A stretch of 23,262 bases of DNA, taken from the NCBI GenBank assembly GCA_017617145.1, contig JAFZWX010000198.1, positions 1-23,262 on the forward strand, read 5' to 3'. The translations under genes were made by a program, and so were the position numbers. The notes beneath the pieces are model-generated. The model was not told the origin of the DNA. It saw only the letters and a list, made by a program, of their open reading frames with translations, and did not search any database. This document shows, piece by piece, positions 15,099 to 23,262 of this stretch. This DNA comes from Treponema sp. Lineage in GTDB: Bacteria > Spirochaetota > Spirochaetia > Treponematales > Treponemataceae. Every line of letters begins with the position of its first letter. Position 1 is the first letter of the stretch.

Positions 15099-16622
15099 AT
15101 GAAAAGTATTGTTGTTTTATTTGACGAAAAAAATAAATATGAAGATGAAAAGGTTTTCGCTGGCCTTAGTGCAAAAGAATTGTGCCACACTGCCGCCGAA
15201 TCCTTTGGTTTTGAAGTACGCACAATAAGCGGTTGTACTACAATTAGTGAACTTTTAGAAGAATTAGACAAAATCTGCACAGAGTCAAGCGCAGAATCGC
15301 TGATTTTCAGTTATGCAGACTGCCTTTTTCTTAATAAAATCCTTACAGAAGGTCTTTTAAGCACTCATTTTGACTACAAGGCAGAATATACCTTTGCCGA
15401 AGGCTACCCAGAAGGCTTTGCTCCAGAGGTTTTAAACAAAGGTACAATTACAATTCTTAAGGAACTATCTAAAACAACAGCAAAAGCAACAGGTGATCAG
15501 AAAATTACCCGCCATTCTATAATGGATATTATCAAAACAGACATAAATTCTTTTGAAGTAGAAACAGTTCTTGCACCAGTAGACTGGCGTCTTTTCCGTT
15601 TTGCCTTTGACTGCAGCAAAAAGGAAAACTTTATTGCATGCCAGAAGCTTTATGAACAGTTTGGAAATAACATTGCAGACCCTGTAGAACTATCAACTGC
15701 CGCAGCAAAAAATCCGGAAATCTTAAAAACTGTTCCTGGTTTTTATAACCTTCAACTTGCACAAAAATGTCAGGGAAAATGCTCATACTGTCCGTATCCG
15801 GCAGCCCTTAAGCAAAAAGAAGGAACTGAGCCAGTTACAGCCGCAAAAATCATGGATTTTAATAAGGCCTGTTCACTTGTCGAACAAATATCAGAACTTT
15901 CCGGCGAAGCAGTAATAGGACTTTCTGCCTGGGGAGAATGTTTTAATCACCCTGATTTACTTAAAATAATAGAAAAAATCCTTTCGTTTGAGGGACTTTC
16001 GGTATTTATAGAAGCCGACGGCTGCTCAATTCCACAAAACTTTGCTGCAGAAGTTGCAAAAATAGTAAATGCCGCTGGTGAACGTACAAACGGCTGGCAA
16101 AAACTTATGATTGCAGTTTCAATGGATGGTTTTACAGCACAGACTTGCGCAAGCTTGCGAGGAAGCGACTTTAATCTTGAAAAATCAGTTGAAACTGTAA
16201 AAAATCTGGAACAGTCTCTCCCTGGTTGTGTGTATCCTCAGTTTGTAAGAATGAACGCAAATGAAGAAGAACTCGAAGGCTTTTTCCGTTATTGGAACGA
16301 AAAAACAAATGCAACAGGCGGTAACTTTATAATTCAAAAATACAACAGTTTTGCAGGTCTGCTTAAAAACGAAGAACCTGCAGATCTTTCTCCATTAGAT
16401 AGAAACGTATGCTGGCATCTTCGTCGCGATATGGCAATCCTTTATAACGGCGATGTTCCGCTCTGTTATAGCCGCGTTCTCGATGATATAAAAGGCAATG
16501 TTTTTGAAGAAGGTCTTGTTTCTGTCTGGAAAAAGTTTGATGACGAGCTTAAAAAACATATAGAACAAAATTATTGTGAAAAATGCGGAGGTTGCGATGA
16601 GTTCTATACCTTCAACTTTTGA
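15099..16622 (+). CDS. Spiro-SPASM radical SAM protein with SpsF-like N-terminal domain
   Basis: 507 residues from the ATG at 15099; the frame stays open further upstream, but MKSIVVLFDEKN matches the start of a Rossmann-like domain. Radical SAM cluster motif CQGKCSYC (C224, C228, C231), with LSAWGE and IAVSMDG following. SPASM cysteines C438, C456, C493, C496 and C499 can hold an auxiliary Fe-S cluster. Residues 1-215 resemble SpsF-type nucleotidyltransferases (SYADCLFLN, GYPEGFAPEVL, VLAPVDWRLFRFAFD) but lack the RxxSxRLPGK phosphate-binding motif. NCBI models name a spirochaete family 'spiro-SPASM protein' with this make-up. SPASM enzymes usually modify peptides, and some act on sugars or other small molecules; the substrate here is unknown. 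First gene of a tightly packed operon, overlapping the next gene by 26 nt. Confidence 0.9.
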   Translation: MKSIVVLFDEKNKYEDEKVFAGLSAKELCHTAAESFGFEVRTISGCTTISELLEELDKICTESSAESLIFSYADCLFLNKILTEGLLSTHFDYKAEYTFAEGYPEGFAPEVLNKGTITILKELSKTTAKATGDQKITRHSIMDIIKTDINSFEVETVLAPVDWRLFRFAFDCSKKENFIACQKLYEQFGNNIADPVELSTAAAKNPEILKTVPGFYNLQLAQKCQGKCSYCPYPAALKQKEGTEPVTAAKIMDFNKACSLVEQISELSGEAVIGLSAWGECFNHPDLLKIIEKILSFEGLSVFIEADGCSIPQNFAAEVAKIVNAAGERTNGWQKLMIAVSMDGFTAQTCASLRGSDFNLEKSVETVKNLEQSLPGCVYPQFVRMNANEEELEGFFRYWNEKTNATGGNFIIQKYNSFAGLLKNEEPADLSPLDRNVCWHLRRDMAILYNGDVPLCYSRVLDDIKGNVFEEGLVSVWKKFDDELKKHIEQNYCEKCGGCDEFYTFNF

Positions 16623-17580
16623 TGAACATCAGATAAACATGACAGTACTTGGTGGAAAAGTTAATAATTCCCCCGATGTACTTAATATGTCTGTAATTCT
16701 TTTACATTCAAGTGCAAGTCATTTAAAACTTAATGTTTTTGAAAACTTAATGGGCTGCAACTTTCGTTCAATAATTTCTATAGAACACGACAGCAGCAAT
16801 TATTCTATTGAAGATATTTCGAAGAAATTTCCTGATATAAAATTTCTTATTCCGTTAGAAAAGGCTTCAGACGGCGAAGTTATAAATCTTGCAATGAGCG
16901 AAATTGATGCAGATTATGTACTTGTGCTTAGAGACAGTCTCTACATTCCAAGTGGAGTAGTACTTACAAATCTTGCAGACCGTCTTACAAGCTCAAAAAT
17001 CTATTGTGTAGTACCTAGGCTTCTTGATAAAAATAAGAACGGTTTGTATACAGTATTTACTCCCGGAGCAGAAAAATCTCATTTTATAATTGATTCCTCA
17101 ACCTTTGTAACAGATGGCAAAAAAACAATTTATCCAAAAGATTTTATAGCTTTATATAATCGAAAAAAATTCATTCAGCTTGGTGGCTTTGATCATACAA
17201 TAAAAACTCCTTACTGGCAGAATCTTGACCTTGCGGTTCGTTCATGGCTTTGGGGTGAAGAAACAAAACTTACAACAATGCTTCAGTTTTCTTATATAGA
17301 TGAGCCTTCGATTGATGACAAAACAATTAATCAGGATTATTTAAAATATTATCTTAAAAATGAAGTTCCAAAATATAAAAACGAAGCAGCATTCATAAAG
17401 AATTCTTCTTTTATTAAATTCCTGTTTCATTCTTCCTGCGGATATCTTGAAGCAAAAAAACAGTTTAAAGCCGCAAAAGAATGGGTAGAAAAAAATAAAT
17501 ATCAGTTCAAAATGGATTTGCAAACTTTTATAAAAGACTGGCAGCAGCCTACAACTCAGGCGGAAACAAATGAAAACTAA
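16597..17580 (+). CDS. GT-A-like (family 2-type) glycosyltransferase-related protein
   Basis: 327 residues from the ATG at 16597, which has GGAGG five bases upstream inside the preceding gene. The pattern is that of GT2-like enzymes: a beta strand VILLHSS, IISIEHDSS, an alpha/beta stretch up to ADYVLVLRDSLYIP (where DxD would be expected; only a single Asp is seen), then ALYNRKKFIQLGGFDHTIKT and WQNLDLAVRSWLWGEET, equal to the acceptor-side 'GGFDE..ED.DL..R...G' motif. Metal binding is therefore doubtful. No membrane segment; a cytoplasmic transferase or a degenerate relative. It overlaps both neighbours (26 and 11 nt), so translation is coupled with the radical SAM and tridomain proteins. 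The sugar and acceptor are unknown. Confidence 0.75.
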   Translation: MSSIPSTFDEHQINMTVLGGKVNNSPDVLNMSVILLHSSASHLKLNVFENLMGCNFRSIISIEHDSSNYSIEDISKKFPDIKFLIPLEKASDGEVINLAMSEIDADYVLVLRDSLYIPSGVVLTNLADRLTSSKIYCVVPRLLDKNKNGLYTVFTPGAEKSHFIIDSSTFVTDGKKTIYPKDFIALYNRKKFIQLGGFDHTIKTPYWQNLDLAVRSWLWGEETKLTTMLQFSYIDEPSIDDKTINQDYLKYYLKNEVPKYKNEAAFIKNSSFIKFLFHSSCGYLEAKKQFKAAKEWVEKNKYQFKMDLQTFIKDWQQPTTQAETNEN

Positions 17581-20035
17581 GCGTGCAGTCATTGTTCAAT
17601 GCAGATTATCATCTTCCAGATTACCAGGTAAAGCTTTGAAAATACTTGGTGAAAAGCCTGTGCTTGCCTGGGTTTTAAATTCAATGAAAAAAGTAAAAGC
17701 AGACAAGTATTTTGTTGCAACAGATCATGAATCGTATGAAATTTTAAAACCAATCTGTAAAGAAAACGGTTTTGAATGCTTTGCAGGCGATTTAGAAGAT
17801 GTTTTAAAACGCTTTTGTGACCTTATAAAAACACTCAAGGTTGAAACAATAATCCGTGCTACAGCCGATAATCCTTTTTTGTTTTATGAAGCTGCACAGG
17901 CTAGCGTAGAAGAATTTGAAGCTAGAAAAAAAAGTCGTCATCCATGCGATTATTTAACCTATACAGGGCTTCCTCACGGTTCGGGAGTTGAAATATTTAG
18001 TGCTCAATCTCTTCTTGATGCTGCAGAACAAACTGATAATCCTTATGACCACGAGCATGTTGGACCGGCACTTTATAATCATAAAGATAAGTTTAACTGC
18101 GAATTTATAAAAGCTCCCGCACGTTTTAATTATCCGGATTTGCGAACAACAATAGATACATATTCTGATTATCTTCGTGCAATTTCTATTGTAAATAATC
18201 TTAAAAACTGCAAAGAGCCGTATACAACAGAACAGATTATTTCGGCCTGTAAAGCAGATGTTGTAAATAATCCGATTATCTTTGTTCCATCTGTTGCAAA
18301 AGGTCAAGGTACAGGACATCTTCATCGCTGTCTTAGTGCAGCAATTGAAACAAAAGGTTTTGTGTATATACCAGACGATTGTACTCTTACAGAAACTGTA
18401 TCAATTCTTGATGAATATAAAGAAAAAGGACTTTCCTGCTGGCAGATAATTAATGAACTCCCCGATGAAACCTATAAACCTGTAATTGTTACAGATAATT
18501 TTAAGCTTTCACAGGAAGAAGCAGAAAAATTTTCAAAATGCAAAAAGCTGATTTCACTTGATGAAGGCTCTGATTTTTCTGAATACTGCGATTATCTTTT
18601 AGATATAATTCCATCTTATGATATTGAACGATTACCTAATCTTTTTGACACAAGCTATATTACAAAGCCTTTGAATGTTAAAAAAAACAGAACTAATGAT
18701 ATTGAAAAAGTTCTTGTTTGTATTGGTGGAGAAGATCCTGCAAGCCTTACACTTCCTGCAGCACAGGCACTTGTAAAAAATCTTCCGGGAGCGAATATTA
18801 CAGCTATTGTAAGTGATGTCGACAAATATAAAAATATTCTGAATATTAATTTTATTCCACCTGTAGAAAATCTTCGTGAAAAAATTTTTGAATATGATTT
18901 AGTTGTTTCACATTATGGACTTACAGCTTTTGAAGCAGCTTTTGCGGGATGCGCAGTAATAATGGTTGCAACAACAAAACTTCATGAACGCCTTGCACAA
19001 AAATATGATTTTGCATATATTCCGCATGGAAAAATTGATTCTGATAAAATGCAGAAAGCTTTAGAATCACCACTGCTTCATCCGCAAATAAAGATGAGCT
19101 TGAAGCAAAAATCTCTTGGATCTTGTATACAAAAACTCGCCCTTGGAACTAAGCTTACTTGTCCTGTTTGTTGTAATAATTCACAGACTATACAAAATGG
19201 TTTACGCCCAGATTCAATTGTATCACGAAATGCTGGACGAACTTACCGCCGCTGCAAAAATTGTGGAATTGTGTATATGTCATTTACTGCAGAAGAAGAA
19301 ATGCAGTATAAAAAATCATATTTTTTTGAAGATTACAAAAAACAATACGGAAAAACGTATGAAGAAGATTTCAATTCCATTAAGGCACAGTGTACTCGTA
19401 GACTTGAAATTATGAATGCCTTGCAGAATAATCAGGGCGGAAATAATTATCTTGATATTGGTTGTGCCTACGGACCTTCTTTAGCCGCTGCAAGTGAGCT
19501 TGGGCTTAATCCTTTTGGAACTGATATTTCTGAAGAAGCAATTCATTATGTAAAAACAAAGCTTCGTTTCCCGTCTTCCTGCAGTGCGTTCCCTGATATT
19601 GATTGTCAGAAAGAATTTGGAATTTCTAAATTTGATTCAGTTTCTATGTGGTATGTAATTGAGCATTTCAAAAATCTTGACAGCGTACTTTCAAAAATTT
19701 CACAAATAACAAAAGATGATGGAATTTTTGCATTTGCTACTCCATCTGGTGAAGGTGTTTCTGCAAAAAGTAACCTTGATCATTTTTATACAATTAGTCC
19801 AATAGACCATTTTTCAATCTGGGAGCCTTCAAAAGCACAGAAAATTCTTAAAAAATATGGTTTTGAAATAATAAAGGTTGTTTCTACAGGACATCATCCC
19901 GAACGATTTCCAATTTGTCAGAAGGAAAACATTCAAAAGGGTAGTGTTAAATGGAATTTGATAGATAAGTATTCAAGACTTATGCAGCTTGGTGATACGG
20001 TTGAAATATATTGCCGTAAAAAGGCGGAAAAATAA
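17570..20035 (+). CDS. Tridomain SpsF-like nucleotidyltransferase / PseG-like / SAM methyltransferase fusion
   Basis: 821 residues with three units. Residues 1-230: an SpsF/acylneuraminate-type nucleotidyltransferase, with RLSSSRLPGK (R12, R17, K21), ATADNPF, GLPHGSGVEIF and LRTTIDTYSDY, all intact, so it should activate a sugar with CTP or another NTP. About 233-525: a PseG-like GT-B hydrolase or transferase, with GTGHLHRC near 247 (His retained), GGEDPASLTLPAAQAL and SHYGLTAFEAAFAGCAV. About 528-821: a class I methyltransferase preceded by a zinc ribbon (CPVC at 530, CKNC near 561), with motif I LDIGCAYG near 627 and a late WYVIEHF. PseF and PseG act in pseudaminic-acid synthesis for flagellin glycosylation in other bacteria, hence a sugar-nucleotide pathway is likely. 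Overlaps the preceding gene by 11 nt and the next by one base. Confidence 0.88.
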   Translation: MKTKRAVIVQCRLSSSRLPGKALKILGEKPVLAWVLNSMKKVKADKYFVATDHESYEILKPICKENGFECFAGDLEDVLKRFCDLIKTLKVETIIRATADNPFLFYEAAQASVEEFEARKKSRHPCDYLTYTGLPHGSGVEIFSAQSLLDAAEQTDNPYDHEHVGPALYNHKDKFNCEFIKAPARFNYPDLRTTIDTYSDYLRAISIVNNLKNCKEPYTTEQIISACKADVVNNPIIFVPSVAKGQGTGHLHRCLSAAIETKGFVYIPDDCTLTETVSILDEYKEKGLSCWQIINELPDETYKPVIVTDNFKLSQEEAEKFSKCKKLISLDEGSDFSEYCDYLLDIIPSYDIERLPNLFDTSYITKPLNVKKNRTNDIEKVLVCIGGEDPASLTLPAAQALVKNLPGANITAIVSDVDKYKNILNINFIPPVENLREKIFEYDLVVSHYGLTAFEAAFAGCAVIMVATTKLHERLAQKYDFAYIPHGKIDSDKMQKALESPLLHPQIKMSLKQKSLGSCIQKLALGTKLTCPVCCNNSQTIQNGLRPDSIVSRNAGRTYRRCKNCGIVYMSFTAEEEMQYKKSYFFEDYKKQYGKTYEEDFNSIKAQCTRRLEIMNALQNNQGGNNYLDIGCAYGPSLAAASELGLNPFGTDISEEAIHYVKTKLRFPSSCSAFPDIDCQKEFGISKFDSVSMWYVIEHFKNLDSVLSKISQITKDDGIFAFATPSGEGVSAKSNLDHFYTISPIDHFSIWEPSKAQKILKKYGFEIIKVVSTGHHPERFPICQKENIQKGSVKWNLIDKYSRLMQLGDTVEIYCRKKAEK

Positions 20036-21672
20036 TGAAGAATATAGTAATTCTTGGTGCAGGTTTAATGCAAAAGCCTGCAATTTTAAGCGCAAAACAA
20101 TTGGGATTTCATACAATAGTGGTAGATGCAGATCCAAAAGCAGTTTGCATTCCACAAGCCGATGAGTTTTTTAAGATTGACTTAAAAGATAAAGAAGGAA
20201 TTCTTGAGCTTTGCACACGTCTTAAAAATTCGCCTGAAGGTCTTGAAGGAGTATTTACTGCCGGAACTGATTTTTCTGCAAGCGTAAGTTATGTATGTGA
20301 AAGACTAGGACTTCCTGCACACAGCTTTGAAGCAGCAACAAATGCAAGTATAAAAACCCAGATGCGTGCCTGCTTTGAAAAAGAAGGTGTTCCGTCTCCT
20401 AAGTTTATAAGAGTAGGAAAATCAGATATCGAGCCATCTTTGCTTGATTGTGTTCTTGCTAAAATGGATTTTCCTTTTGTGGTAAAGCCTGTCGACAACA
20501 TGGGAGCTCGTGGCTGCAGAATGGTTCGTACAAAAGAAGAGTTTCTTCCTGCTGTAATAATTGCCTGTGAATGCTCCCGAACCGGTTATTCGATTATTGA
20601 AGAATATATGGAAGGTCCTGAGTTTTCAATTGACGCTCTTGTTTATAACGGAAAATTTATTGTAACAGGTTTTGCTATCCGCCATATAAAATATGAACCT
20701 TATTTTATAGAAATTGGTCACACAATGCCGGCAGAAATTCCTGCTGAAATGCACGACGAGCTTATAAGTGTTTTTGCACTTGGAGCTAAAGCCGAAGGAC
20801 TTACTTGTGGTGCAGCAAAAGCAGATATTAAATACACAAAAAATGGTCCTATGATTGGCGAAATTGCAGCAAGACTTTCCGGCGGATACATGTCGGGCTG
20901 GACTTATCCATATGCAAGCGATTTAAATTTGACAGAGCAGGGCATTCTTATAGCAACAGGTCAGAAACCTGAAAAACTGCTGGAGCGTGCAAAGCCTGTA
21001 AATTACACTCCGTCAGAGCTTTGCAAAAATCTTTCTGCTCCGTACGAATTGTTTGAAGTTCCTTGTGTACGTACTTCTGCAGAACGCGCCTGGATGAGTA
21101 TTCCGGGAACTGTTGAATACGTAGAAAATATAAAAGAATACACAGACAAAGCAGTGTTTGATGTTTTACCGCGAGCAACAGTGAGTATTGGAAGTCACGT
21201 GGATTTTCCACGCAACAATGTAGAAAAATGCGGAAACATAATTGCAGTAAGTCATGACCGTGATACTGCAATTAAGGCTGCAGAAGATGCTGTTTCAAAT
21301 GTGTTTATAACGCTTAAACCAAATACGAAAGAAACTGACGATTATCTTGCAGGAGTTACTCAGTCTGATGAAGATAATTTCCCGCCTGATGCTTTTCGGA
21401 AGCTTACAGAAAATCAGCTTAATGAGTTGCAGGGTGAAATTGCCGCAGACACACCGGTTGCACAGACTCTCCCTGATTTTTTAAACACTTCTGAATATCA
21501 GAATTTGATAGACTGGAACTTTAATACAATTGCGCAGACTCTTCAAAAGTTCGACATTCTTCGTACAAAACATCCGGCATTAAATAAACAGGAATTTTTC
21601 AAAGCAATTATACGCGGTGGAATTCAGGGTGCAGTTTATTATTCCGATAGTATCAAGGCGGGCAGAAAATGA
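20035..21672 (+). CDS. ATP-grasp ligase-type protein
   Basis: 545 residues. A biotin-carboxylase-like N-domain (VILGAGLMQKPAILSAKQLG, VVDADP) precedes the ATP-grasp fold (about 105-300): FPFVVKPVDNMGARGCRMV (Lys near 150), IIEEYMEGPEFSID, and IGEIAARLSGG supplying metal-ligand Glu. Such enzymes form an amide or carboxylate bond through acyl phosphate, with ADP release. The C-terminal part (about 310-545) contains AWMSIPGTVEYVENI and a domain with no function I recognise; the last 120 residues are acidic. Closest types are amino-acid ligases and PurK/CarB-like proteins, with substrate unknown. The start overlaps the preceding stop (TAATG); the stop overlaps the amidase start (ATGA). Confidence 0.87.
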   Translation: MKNIVILGAGLMQKPAILSAKQLGFHTIVVDADPKAVCIPQADEFFKIDLKDKEGILELCTRLKNSPEGLEGVFTAGTDFSASVSYVCERLGLPAHSFEAATNASIKTQMRACFEKEGVPSPKFIRVGKSDIEPSLLDCVLAKMDFPFVVKPVDNMGARGCRMVRTKEEFLPAVIIACECSRTGYSIIEEYMEGPEFSIDALVYNGKFIVTGFAIRHIKYEPYFIEIGHTMPAEIPAEMHDELISVFALGAKAEGLTCGAAKADIKYTKNGPMIGEIAARLSGGYMSGWTYPYASDLNLTEQGILIATGQKPEKLLERAKPVNYTPSELCKNLSAPYELFEVPCVRTSAERAWMSIPGTVEYVENIKEYTDKAVFDVLPRATVSIGSHVDFPRNNVEKCGNIIAVSHDRDTAIKAAEDAVSNVFITLKPNTKETDDYLAGVTQSDEDNFPPDAFRKLTENQLNELQGEIAADTPVAQTLPDFLNTSEYQNLIDWNFNTIAQTLQKFDILRTKHPALNKQEFFKAIIRGGIQGAVYYSDSIKAGRK

Positions 21673-22697
21673 AAAAATATCCATTGCTTTTAGTTATATT
21701 TTCTCTAGTCTCAACTTTGTTTGCCGTAAACGACATATCCTTAATGGATAAAGCAAAGCAGGAAGGAATTACTCTTTATTGGGATTCACTTTCCGAAACT
21801 GGAATGCTCGAAAAAGACGGACATCAGATTACATTCAGAAAGGATGAAAGCATAGTAATGCTCGATAGTGTACGTTTTGAAGTAACTGATGCGCCAGAAA
21901 TTAAAAACAACAAAATTTATGTTTCGCAGAAATTCATGAACGATACCGACAAAATGTTTAAGGAAAACAATTCCACAATGTTTAAAGTTGGTGCAATTCT
22001 CATAGATGCAGGTCACGGAGGTAAAGATCCTGGCGCCTTAAAAACATATAAAATTAATGGAAAAGATGTTACGATTCAGGAAAAAGATATAAATCTTAAA
22101 GTTGCAAAACTACTTGGCGAACGACTAAAAACTGCATATCCAGACAAGCAGATTATCCTTACACGCGATAAAGATGTTTTCTTAACATTGCAGGAACGAA
22201 CAGAAATTGCAAACAATGTAAAGGTAAAAGAAGATGAAGCTGTACTGTTCATTTCTGTTCATGTAAATTCTTCTCTCAATAAAACTTCATCAGGTTATGA
22301 AGTCTGGTATCTTTCTCCGGGATATCGTCGTACAGTTCTCGATAAATCTTCAACAGATGACACTTCGCTTTTCCCAATTTTAAATTCAATGCTGGAAGAA
22401 GAATACACCACAGAGTCAATAATGATTGCAAAGTTTATAATGGATGGACTTCAAAGCCAGATTGGAGATCAGTCAAAGGCTCGTGGAATCAAAGCAGAGG
22501 AGTGGTTTGTCGTAAAGAATTCAAATATGCCTAGTGTTCTTATAGAGCTTGGATTTGTTTCTAATGAAAAAGAAGCCCTTCTTTTGAATAACGATACATA
22601 CTTGAAAAAAGCAGCCCTTGGAATATATAATGGCATTGCTGCGTTCATTACACACTTTGAACGTTCAAAAGGATTTACTTCTGCAAATGAAAATTGA
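21669..22697 (+). CDS. N-acetylmuramoyl-L-alanine amidase (Amidase_3)
   Basis: 342 residues with a signal peptide (MKKYPLLLVIFSLVSTLFA), so periplasmic. The enzyme cleaves the amide bond between N-acetylmuramic acid and L-alanine in peptidoglycan. An N-terminal domain of about 90 residues precedes the zinc amidase domain: LIDAGHGGKDPG (zinc His near 114), QEKDINLKVA (second ligand Glu), ILTRDKDVFLTLQERTEIAN, FISVHVNSS (His near 196) and VLIELGFVSN (catalytic Glu near 292). All key residues are present, so it should be active. It starts within the ATP-grasp stop (ATGA) and overlaps the GerMN gene by 11 nt. The amidase upstream of a flagellar-filament protein gene is an order I recall from T. 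pallidum (TP0247-TP0249), not checked here. Confidence 0.94.
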   Translation: MKKYPLLLVIFSLVSTLFAVNDISLMDKAKQEGITLYWDSLSETGMLEKDGHQITFRKDESIVMLDSVRFEVTDAPEIKNNKIYVSQKFMNDTDKMFKENNSTMFKVGAILIDAGHGGKDPGALKTYKINGKDVTIQEKDINLKVAKLLGERLKTAYPDKQIILTRDKDVFLTLQERTEIANNVKVKEDEAVLFISVHVNSSLNKTSSGYEVWYLSPGYRRTVLDKSSTDDTSLFPILNSMLEEEYTTESIMIAKFIMDGLQSQIGDQSKARGIKAEEWFVVKNSNMPSVLIELGFVSNEKEALLLNNDTYLKKAALGIYNGIAAFITHFERSKGFTSANEN

Positions 22698-23145
22698 CCT
22701 TAAAAAATATATTCCATTTTATGTTGCCACAGTTGCTGCTATTGGACTTCTAATTCTTTCTGCAGGCTTATATGCAAAAAAAGGATACGGTACAAAATAT
22801 GTATTTATTTTTCCTTGTGTTGATGAAGGAAAATATGTACTCGAAACCCGATATTTAAAAGATAATCCAAATAAAGATTCTATTTCATATTTTGCCGACG
22901 AACTTGTTTTAGGTTCAGGACTCGAACGAACAAAGTATCTTTTTACTCCAGGAACAAAGGTAAATTCCTGTTTTGAGCGAAATAAAACTGTTTACATAGA
23001 TCTTTCTGAAGATGTAATTTATATGGGTCACAATGTCATTTTAATTAAGGATGGTATTGAATTATTAAAGACAAATATAAAGAAGAATTTCCCGCATATT
23101 GATGAAGTGCAGGTGTTTGTAGATGGAAAATATGCTTTTGAATAG
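22687..23145 (+). CDS. Membrane-anchored GerMN-domain protein
   Basis: 152 residues from the ATG at 22687; an in-frame upstream extension lies inside the amidase gene and is not needed. One transmembrane helix (about residues 9-31, IPFYVATVAAIGLLILSAG) places the rest in the periplasm. The following stretch resembles the GerMN domain: YVLETRYLKD, DELVLGSGLERTKYLFTPGT, KVNSCFERNKTVYIDLSEDV. GerMN is known from sporulation and germination proteins and from many non-sporulating bacteria, where its role is not defined; a structural or peptidoglycan-linked role beside the amidase is plausible. No catalytic residues are obvious. Overlaps the amidase gene by 11 nt. The strong promoter of the next gene starts 11 nt beyond its stop. 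Confidence 0.8.
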   Translation: MKIDLKKYIPFYVATVAAIGLLILSAGLYAKKGYGTKYVFIFPCVDEGKYVLETRYLKDNPNKDSISYFADELVLGSGLERTKYLFTPGTKVNSCFERNKTVYIDLSEDVIYMGHNVILIKDGIELLKTNIKKNFPHIDEVQVFVDGKYAFE

Positions 23146-23156
23146 AAAAAAAAGCG

Positions 23157-23185
23157 TTGACAAAATAGAATACTTATAAGATAAT
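23157..23185 (+). promoter_or_regulatory. Strong housekeeping promoter upstream of the last gene
   Basis: TTGACA (23157-23162), exactly 17 nt, GATAAT (23180-23185): 6/6 and 5/6 matches. An AT-rich leader of about 45 nt carries AAGGAG. No hairpin lies between this promoter and the GerMN stop, so read-through from the operon can add to it. Confidence 0.82.
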
Positions 23186-23236: not shown

Positions 23237-23262
23237 ATGAAGAAGACTTTGGGTTTAATTGC
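23237..23262 (+). CDS. Start of a secreted protein gene, cut by window end (possible flaA)
   Basis: An ATG preceded by AAGGAG (spacing about 7) opens the frame MKKTLGLI, the start of a typical signal peptide; only 26 bases are in the window. The strong promoter implies an abundant product. In Treponema pallidum I recall the flagellar sheath protein gene flaA lying just after the amidase and a small gene; that makes flaA a good guess by position only, since the visible residues do not identify it. Confidence 0.6.

What the first reader, a model, noticed from the sequence alone, without database searches (positions are those of the whole stretch)
15099..23145. Candidate undescribed spirochaete envelope/flagellar glycan system
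Six overlapping or abutting genes combine a spiro-SPASM radical SAM enzyme, a glycosyltransferase-like protein, an activating fusion enzyme, an ATP-grasp ligase, a peptidoglycan amidase and a GerMN protein, directly upstream of a strongly expressed secreted-protein start (possible flaA). Flagellin glycosylation by an unusual sugar has been reported in Treponema denticola. A shared role in making a sugar or peptide-sugar for the filament or envelope would tie these together. This is inference; no target motif is seen.
Basis: inference. Interest (0 to 1): 0.7.

Follow-up and report, generated by a model that had tools for sequence, protein, structure and literature searches.

The report
Spirochaete flagellin sugar-activation gene cluster
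A conserved set of treponeme genes, sitting next to the gene for the flagellar sheath protein, probably builds and activates the unusual sialic-acid-like sugar put on spirochaete flagella; its supposed 'radical' enzyme has lost its catalytic iron-sulfur site again and again in evolution, including in what appears to be the syphilis bacterium.

Summary
The six genes are real (15099-23145). A seventh, truncated at 23237, starts exactly like flaA of close relatives. In relatives the order g1-g2-g3-g4-g5-g6-flaA is kept in 57 of 59 loci with room. g3 = CMP-sugar synthetase + PseG-like hydrolase + methyltransferase; g4 = ATP-grasp ligase. g1 and g4 (g2 and g3 by linkage) go with NeuB, PseB/PseC-like enzymes and Maf transferases; none of these was found in the two Borrelia-like genomes searched for all (g2, g3 not searched there). 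I propose they make and activate the acylated, O-methylated pseudaminic-type sugar of T. denticola FlaB (450.2 Da). Amidase, GerMN and flaA form a second module, separate in the T. denticola- and T. pallidum-sized genomes. Surprise: spiroSPASM (g1) is a degenerate cytidylyltransferase fused to a BtrN-like radical-SAM/twitch domain. Its CxxxCxxC is complete in only 96 of 246 sequences (15 changes by parsimony; 24 losses without regain), while the four auxiliary-cluster cysteines survive in 244. Radical chemistry thus seems dispensable in most members, though the window copy is intact. The chemistry is inferred. New variant of a known kind.

The parts
15099..16622 (+). g1, spiroSPASM: N-terminal degenerate cytidylyltransferase-like domain (about aa 1-205) fused to a radical-SAM core with CxxxCxxC (C224, C228, C231 counted from this start; C244/C248/C251 on the 15039 ORF) and a four-Cys SPASM/twitch domain
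16597..17580 (+). g2, GT-A-fold glycosyltransferase-like protein, 26-nt overlap with g1
17570..18274 (+). g3a, CMP-sugar synthetase (CTP_transf_3) domain, active-site residues conserved
   Evidence: PF02348 109 bits; 6oew E 6.4e-20; R12/S15/R17/K21/D100/D196 invariant in A5, 31 sequences
18275..19144 (+). g3b, PseG-like nucleotide-sugar hydrolase domain
   Evidence: TIGR03590 39 bits, below cut-off 153.6; no Pfam match when cut out alone; GxGHxxR in at least 95% of the aligned rows of 83 sequences
19145..20035 (+). g3c, zinc-ribbon plus SAM methyltransferase domain
   Evidence: PF13489 70 bits; CPxC...CxxC cysteines in at least 95% of the aligned rows (one shown outlier, L125)
20035..21672 (+). 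g4, ATP-grasp carboxylate-amine ligase with LAL_C2 domain
   Evidence: PF13535 54.7 bits, PF18603 34.9 bits; nearest solved: 4dim, L-amino acid ligase 3vot; homologues fused to an FMN_dh domain in G016 (L162) and G090 (L161)
21669..22697 (+). g5, N-acetylmuramoyl-L-alanine amidase (flaA module)
   Evidence: PF01520 162 bits; with g6 and flaA in L222 and L223
22687..23145 (+). g6, GerMN/Germane-domain protein (flaA module)
   Evidence: PF10646 25 bits; found between g5 and flaA
23237..23262 (+). start of flaA (truncated by the window end)
   Evidence: MKKTLGLI identical to the gene start in L001/L002; FlaA family PF04620 found downstream of the cluster in relatives
23157..23185 (+). possible sigma-70-type promoter of flaA
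   Evidence: TTGACA-17-GATAAT, 11 of 12; such matches are not enriched over shuffles

Best explanation
g1-g4 are the activation and tailoring arm of spirochaete flagellin glycosylation with a nonulosonic acid (NulO), physically coupled in Treponema to an amidase-GerMN-flaA module. Proposed flow: a PseB-like dehydratase and a PseC-like aminotransferase (encoded elsewhere) make a UDP-4-amino sugar. g4 (ATP-grasp) joins a carboxylic acid to its 4-amino group in place of PseH; g3c O-methylates that acid. g3b (PseG-like) removes UDP; NeuB adds three carbons; g3a makes the CMP-sugar; Maf transferases put it on FlaB. In T. denticola the product would be the 450.2 Da glycan. g1 binds a CMP-sugar or one of these enzymes through its degenerate cytidylyltransferase domain; its radical reaction is an optional tailoring step, kept in the window's lineage and lost in most sampled relatives. 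g2 is a glycosyltransferase or partner translated with g1. Shown: domains, conservation, co-occurrence of g1 and g4 with NulO/Maf genes, repeated loss of the cluster motif. Inferred: substrates, step order, target.
For: Co-occurrence: NeuB in 185 of 198 Spirochaetota genomes (E<=1e-25); spiroSPASM (E<1e-30) in 182 of 198; both 178, spiroSPASM only 4, NeuB only 7, neither 9; Fisher p 6.7e-9, not corrected for kinship. PseB-like in 8 of 12, PseC-like in 9 of 12 and Maf in 9 of 12 genomes tested; none of the three in Borrelia-like G112 and G187 or in flagellin-less G156. g4 homologue in 12 of 15 genomes, not in G112, G187 or G156. G006, the genome of L002 (80-81% identical g1), has NeuB, PseB-like, PseC-like and Maf. 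Even the 1.14 Mb T. pallidum-sized genome keeps g1-g2-g3, g4, NeuB, PseB/C-like and four Maf matches. PseH over cut-off in 0 of 13. Mass of a monoacetyl NulO residue 274.116 plus 2-methoxy-trihydroxyhexanoyl = 450.185 (structure recalled, 450.2 Da read in PMC9481697). Precedent: Shewanella sfmABCDE, a 274 Da NulO with a methylated 236-264 Da group, in an operon with a methyltransferase and an ATP-grasp protein (PMC3765264 passages).
Against: No gene in the cluster has been tested. g2 and g3 were not searched in the genome samples; their co-occurrence rests on linkage to g1. PseB/PseC matches are all below their equivalog cut-offs, though the same searches also hit many control genomes; the PseG match is weak; so the NulO type is open. 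Seven of the nine genomes lacking both NeuB and spiroSPASM look like one clade, so there are few independent co-losses; 11 of 198 genomes are discordant. G174 lacks spiroSPASM and NeuB but has a g4 homologue (2.9e-43), PseC-like and two Maf matches. PseH-like matches below cut-off occur in 5 of 13 genomes, up to 83 bits (cut-off 93) in G207 and 69 in G171. NeuB lies tens of kilobases or more from g1 in the nine genomes where I saw both. The window's own genome is not held, so its NeuB, Maf and other partners were seen only in relatives.
Confidence: 0.65

Rival explanations
1. The same enzymes make a nonulosonic acid for a surface polysaccharide, lipid or non-flagellar glycoprotein rather than for flagellin.
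For: No target motif is seen; NulOs decorate many envelopes (established knowledge); g2 is a GT-A transferase of unknown target.
Against: Gene order with flaA in 57 of 59 loci; Maf-family transferases in 9 of 12 genomes and none in G112, G187, G156, although G174, which lacks NeuB and spiroSPASM, has two; T. denticola FlaBs are reported to carry a 450.2 Da glycan.
Confidence: 0.17
2. One reading: one six-gene system in which a radical SAM enzyme makes an unusual sugar or peptide-sugar and the amidase and GerMN protein help to install it in the envelope.
Against: Radical cluster motif incomplete in 150 of 246 members; g5-g6-flaA separate from g1-g3 in the T. denticola- and T. pallidum-sized genomes.
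Confidence: 0.1
3. g1 lineages without the CxxxCxxC are decaying remnants, and the apparent family is an enzyme on its way out.
For: dN/dS is higher among pairs without the motif (median 0.28, 115 pairs) than among intact pairs (0.175, 24 pairs), and 0.31-0.33 in mixed pairs; intact pairs are also more closely related.
Against: dN/dS is far below 1; four auxiliary cysteines kept in 244 of 246; of 92 columns at least 90% conserved in intact members only 6 fall below 70% in the others; a long ORF is kept even in the reduced 1.14 Mb genome.
Confidence: 0.08

Closest known systems
Treponema denticola FlaB 450.2 Da glycan (Kurniyati 2017, not held; cited in PMC9481697, passages read)
   Same: Genus; mass equals monoacetyl NulO + methoxy-trihydroxyhexanoyl (structure recalled); NeuB present in the T. 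denticola-sized genome G171
   Different: My searches of the held papers showed no biosynthetic role given to g1-g4; in G171 g4 and flaA are not next to g1-g3
Campylobacter/Helicobacter CMP-pseudaminic acid pathway (PseB-C-H-G-I-F) with Maf
   Same: Same step types: dehydratase, aminotransferase, PseG-like hydrolase, NeuB-family synthase, CMP-synthetase, Maf
   Different: CMP-synthetase + PseG-like + methyltransferase fused in one protein; no PseH over cut-off; extra ATP-grasp, spiroSPASM and GT-A proteins; the PseB, PseC, PseG and PseH equivalog cut-offs tested are unmet
Shewanella oneidensis sfmABCDE (PMC3765264, passages)
   Same: PseI-like protein, SAM methyltransferase and ATP-grasp_4 protein linked to a 274 Da NulO on flagellin that carries a methylated group
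   Different: Other genes differ (TPP-dependent enzyme, reductase); the passages name no radical SAM protein; homology to g3c/g4 was not tested here
BtrN (radical SAM dehydrogenase of 2-deoxy-scyllo-inosamine) and other twitch/SPASM enzymes
   Different: g1 carries an N-terminal cytidylyltransferase-like domain, and most sampled members lack the complete radical-SAM motif
Leptospira cytidylyltransferase 6OEW
   Different: The g1 domain lacks the conserved R..S.R...K nucleotide loop and has its own invariant residues (G106, D162, R164, R167)
Polypeptide GalNAc-transferases (GT27)
   Different: About 11% identity, no strict DxD motif, no lectin-like second domain in 327 residues; shared fold only

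Membership tests
spiroSPASM (TIGR04321) | Whole-protein score over curated cut-off | tested here: met
   488 bits vs 250
Active radical SAM enzyme | CxxxCxxC cluster motif in the window protein | tested here: met
   CQGKCSYC present in the window copy; but PF04055 only 20.3 bits, below its cut-off 29.5
Active radical SAM enzyme | CxxxCxxC conserved across the orthologue family | tested here: not met
   96 of 246 complete; 15 changes by parsimony, 24 losses without regain on a 195-tip tree
SPASM/twitch auxiliary cluster | Four conserved cysteines | tested here: met
   244 of 246; PF13186 27.4 bits vs 21.5
CMP-sugar synthetase (CTP_transf_3), g3a | Domain score and nucleotide-binding residues | tested here: met
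   109 bits vs 22.6; R12, S15, R17, K21, D100, D196 invariant in 31 sequences
CMP-sugar synthetase, g1 N-terminal domain | Nucleotide-loop residues | tested here: not met
   No conserved R/S/K in the loop of 40 sequences although the fold matches
PseG (TIGR03590), g3b | Equivalog cut-off | tested here: not met
   39 bits vs 153.6
PseG-like hydrolase, g3b | GxGHxxR motif (its role recalled) | tested here: met
   G247, G249, H250, R253 in at least 95% of aligned rows
Pse-type NulO pathway in relatives | NeuB-family synthase | tested here: met
   12 of 12 genomes behind the loci tested; 185 of 198 in the phylum sample
Pse-type NulO pathway in relatives | PseB, PseC and PseH equivalogs over cut-off | tested here: not met
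   0 of 12, 0 of 12 and 0 of 13 over cut-off; sub-threshold matches in 8, 9 and 5
Maf-type flagellin glycosylation | Maf-family (PF01973) transferases present in relatives | tested here: met
   9 of 12 genomes; none in G112, G187, G156
Flagellin glycosylation | g1-g4 needed for the FlaB glycan | not testable with these tools
   Needs mutants and mass spectrometry
GT27 glycosyltransferase, g2 | Fold and metal-binding DxD/DxH | tested here: inconclusive
Sfm system of Shewanella | Homology of the methyltransferase and ATP-grasp proteins | not tested
   Only passages of PMC3765264 were read

The most novel reading that the evidence does not exclude
spiroSPASM is a CMP-nonulosonate-handling protein, a degenerate cytidylyltransferase fused to a BtrN-like radical-SAM/twitch domain, in which the catalytic radical-SAM cluster is facultative: lost many times (15 state changes, 24 losses without regain on the sampled tree) while the auxiliary cluster and the rest of the protein stay under selection. 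It would be a radical SAM family whose conserved, ancestral function is not radical chemistry, at the heart of flagellin-sugar synthesis in most spirochaetes sampled (182 of 198).
Probability: 0.4. Interest if true: 0.75.

Novelty: new variant of a known kind. Interest (0 to 1): 0.6.

Why it matters
If right, it assigns genes to the unusual flagellin glycan that T. denticola is reported to need for filament assembly, and implies that T. pallidum (if G068 is that species) keeps a scattered route for such a sugar despite its reduced genome. It also offers a natural experiment on radical SAM enzymes: sister proteins with and without the catalytic cluster motif in the same gene neighbourhood, which makes the question 'what does the rest of the protein do?' directly testable.

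Tried and rejected
Rejected: that all six genes are one pathway (g5-g6-flaA are a separate conserved unit in L222 and L223). Rejected: that the Cys loss is an alignment slip (the flanking P-Y residues are mostly shared, the 4 auxiliary cysteines are kept, and 69 other residue triplets occur at the three columns); some rows keep one or two of the three cysteines (35 of the 140 rows counted as lost), so 'incomplete' is the exact word. Weakly supported and left as a lead: a KDG-like origin of the acyl group. A KDPG aldolase lies about 6 kb from NeuB, and a HAD phosphatase and an FMN_dh lie next to g3 in the T. pallidum-sized genome, but in the loci held good matches of the HAD and the aldolase were not found beside these genes elsewhere. 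The FMN_dh link is better: it is fused to the g4 homologue in G016 and G090 by Pfam, and tblastn of an FMN domain hits the long g4-type ORFs of G054 and G151 too. But FMN_dh-family proteins occur in 15 of 15 genomes, so presence alone says nothing. TIGR04321 matches with E>1e-30 in 6 genomes were treated as other radical SAM proteins; the model also rings below cut-off in 10 of 14 control genomes. Literature: spiroSPASM/TIGR04321 in 0 papers of the held library; the T. pallidum locus tags gave only a genome paper listing fused ORF names. These searches cover only open-licence PMC.

Counts: one search used 246 rows: the window, one spiroSPASM from each of 129 loci (at least 100 bits; L129 with 84 bits dropped) and 116 of the proteins P0001-P0120 (at least 480 aa), themselves the best 120 of 696 found. 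Some of these rows are the same gene fetched twice. The tree used 195: 11 rows from genome places already present, L127 (dropped in error as a duplicate; its motif is incomplete) and 39 of the P0001-P0052 rows (those whose number is not a multiple of 5) were left out. The loss count is rooted on L130. dN/dS is NG86 on non-independent pairs with dS 0.1-1.5 and is rough.
Full report
What is there. The window is most likely from a Treponema: the closest fetched loci are Treponema metagenome-assembled genomes. On the + strand from 15099 six genes follow each other with overlaps or abutting ends, and at 23237 a seventh begins with the same eight residues as flaA of close relatives. In 80 loci fetched from public genomes with a spiroSPASM profile (the best 80 of 470), g1 and g2 are side by side in 80 of 80 and g3 follows in 77, the rest ending at the contig end. 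With enough contig left, g4 follows in 65 of 68, and all of g1-g6-flaA lie in order in 57 of 59 (exceptions L047, L055). g1 and g2 overlap by exactly 26 nt in 87 of 89 loci, including the T. denticola- and T. pallidum-sized genomes, which suggests coupled translation.

Two modules. In the genomes of T. denticola size (G171) and T. pallidum size (G068), g1-g2-g3 are together, g4 is elsewhere, and g5-g6-flaA are together at a third place. In 11 more distant spirochaete loci (L126, L129-L136, L138, L139) tblastn found no g2, g3c or g4 at the g1 locus; a separate cytidylyltransferase gene directly follows g1 in 4 of them (L129, L130, L131, L135). In four loci (L123, L125, L137, L140) the g3 fusion is split, with the PseG-methyltransferase part in its own ORF. 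So the amidase and GerMN protein belong with flaA, and g1-g4 with sugar activation.

Co-occurrence. In 198 Spirochaetota genomes spiroSPASM is over cut-off in 170 and without any match in 10, NeuB is present in 185, flagellin in 197. With spiroSPASM called at E<1e-30, 178 genomes have both, 4 spiroSPASM only, 7 NeuB only, 9 neither (p 6.7e-9, not corrected for kinship). Seven of the nine look like one Borrelia-like clade; the others are G156 (no flagellin) and G174. In the 12 genomes tested, PseB-like, PseC-like and Maf proteins are all missing from G112, G187 and G156, as is g4. G174 breaks the pattern: no spiroSPASM, NeuB or PseB-like match, but a g4 homologue (2.9e-43), PseC-like proteins and two Maf matches. 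PseH is over cut-off in none of 13, with weaker matches in 5; this fits g4 doing the N-acylation but does not prove it. g2 and g3 themselves were not searched in these samples. NeuB is not next to the cluster: in the nine genomes where I saw both positions (G001, G012, G018, G068, G126, G136, G163, G171, G207) they are more than 40 kb apart.

Link to a known glycan. PMC9481697 (passages read) states that T. denticola FlaB proteins carry a 450.2 Da glycan essential for filament assembly. From recall, Kurniyati 2017 describes it as a monoacetylated nonulosonic acid of pseudaminic configuration with an N7 2-methoxy-4,5,6-trihydroxyhexanoyl group; that paper is not held. The arithmetic agrees: 274.116 + 176.068 = 450.185. 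A methyltransferase and an ATP-grasp ligase are just what such a group needs. In Shewanella, the sfmABCDE operon, with a methyltransferase and an ATP-grasp protein, is required for a flagellin modification with a 274 Da nonulosonic acid and a methylated 236-264 Da substituent, in a species said to lack clear PseH, PseG, PseI and PseF orthologues (PMC3765264, passages; one heading there names only SO_3261-SO_3264 as required for normal motility). This mapping to spirochaetes is my inference.

The odd enzyme. In 246 spiroSPASM sequences the radical-SAM CxxxCxxC is complete in 96, while the four SPASM cysteines are kept in 244. On a 195-tip tree built without that loop there are 15 changes by parsimony (shuffled labels: mean 48.6), or 24 losses if it is never regained. 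The motif is missing in the T. denticola- and T. pallidum-sized genomes. Of 92 columns at least 90% conserved in 55 intact members, only six fall below 70% in the 140 others: the three cysteines, Y253 beside them, W298 next to the Gly-Glu motif, and S361; 47 stay at 90% or more. dN/dS stays well below 1 among pairs without the motif (median 0.28) but is higher than among the closer intact pairs (0.175). So the radical site is released while most of the protein stays under selection. The window copy retains the motif and may still perform a radical step, perhaps oxidation or epimerisation of a CMP-linked sugar (inference from BtrN, BlsE and CTP-binding viperin among the nearest folds).

Verdict. 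Flagellar-glycan role: likely (0.65) but untested. The most novel reading, a radical SAM family whose conserved function is not radical chemistry, has about 0.4 probability.

Noticed in passing
L193:10051-13589 (G068); L195:7785-11189 (G171); L196:10203-13757 (G001); L198:4873-8186 (G018): Directly after the PseC-like gene lies a three-gene set resembling a molybdenum hydroxylase (large subunit, [2Fe-2S], FAD), even in the 1.14 Mb T. pallidum-sized genome, where the large subunit matches only one MoCo-binding domain. Pfam was run on L193 only; the other loci were judged by gene sizes and N-termini.
   Followed up: partly
L157:8660-9073 and L158:9232-9645: A 137-aa protein with a sub-threshold DnaJ-like match follows NeuB in both the T. 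denticola- and T. pallidum-sized genomes (56% identical).
   Followed up: partly
L162:7416-9656 and L161:7173-9338: ATP-grasp ligase fused to an FMN-dependent dehydrogenase domain in distant spirochaetes; may hint that the ligase's acid substrate comes from a 2-oxo/2-hydroxy acid.
   Followed up: partly
L033, L035, L037, L047: One clade (three of the four from horse faeces) keeps g1-g2-g3, but g4 is not found downstream in the three loci where the contig allows a check (L035, L037, L047).
   Followed up: no
window:15039-15098: The stretch upstream of the likely g1 start reads in frame like the N-terminal extension (INLFN.LPI) of several predicted homologues, so either the longer start is real or the upstream DNA is conserved for another reason.
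   Followed up: no
window:655-8528: A minus-strand run of genes that look like SpoIIE-type phosphatases, an anti-sigma kinase and an anti-sigma antagonist, followed by a TPR gene (judged by eye, no family search made).
   Followed up: no
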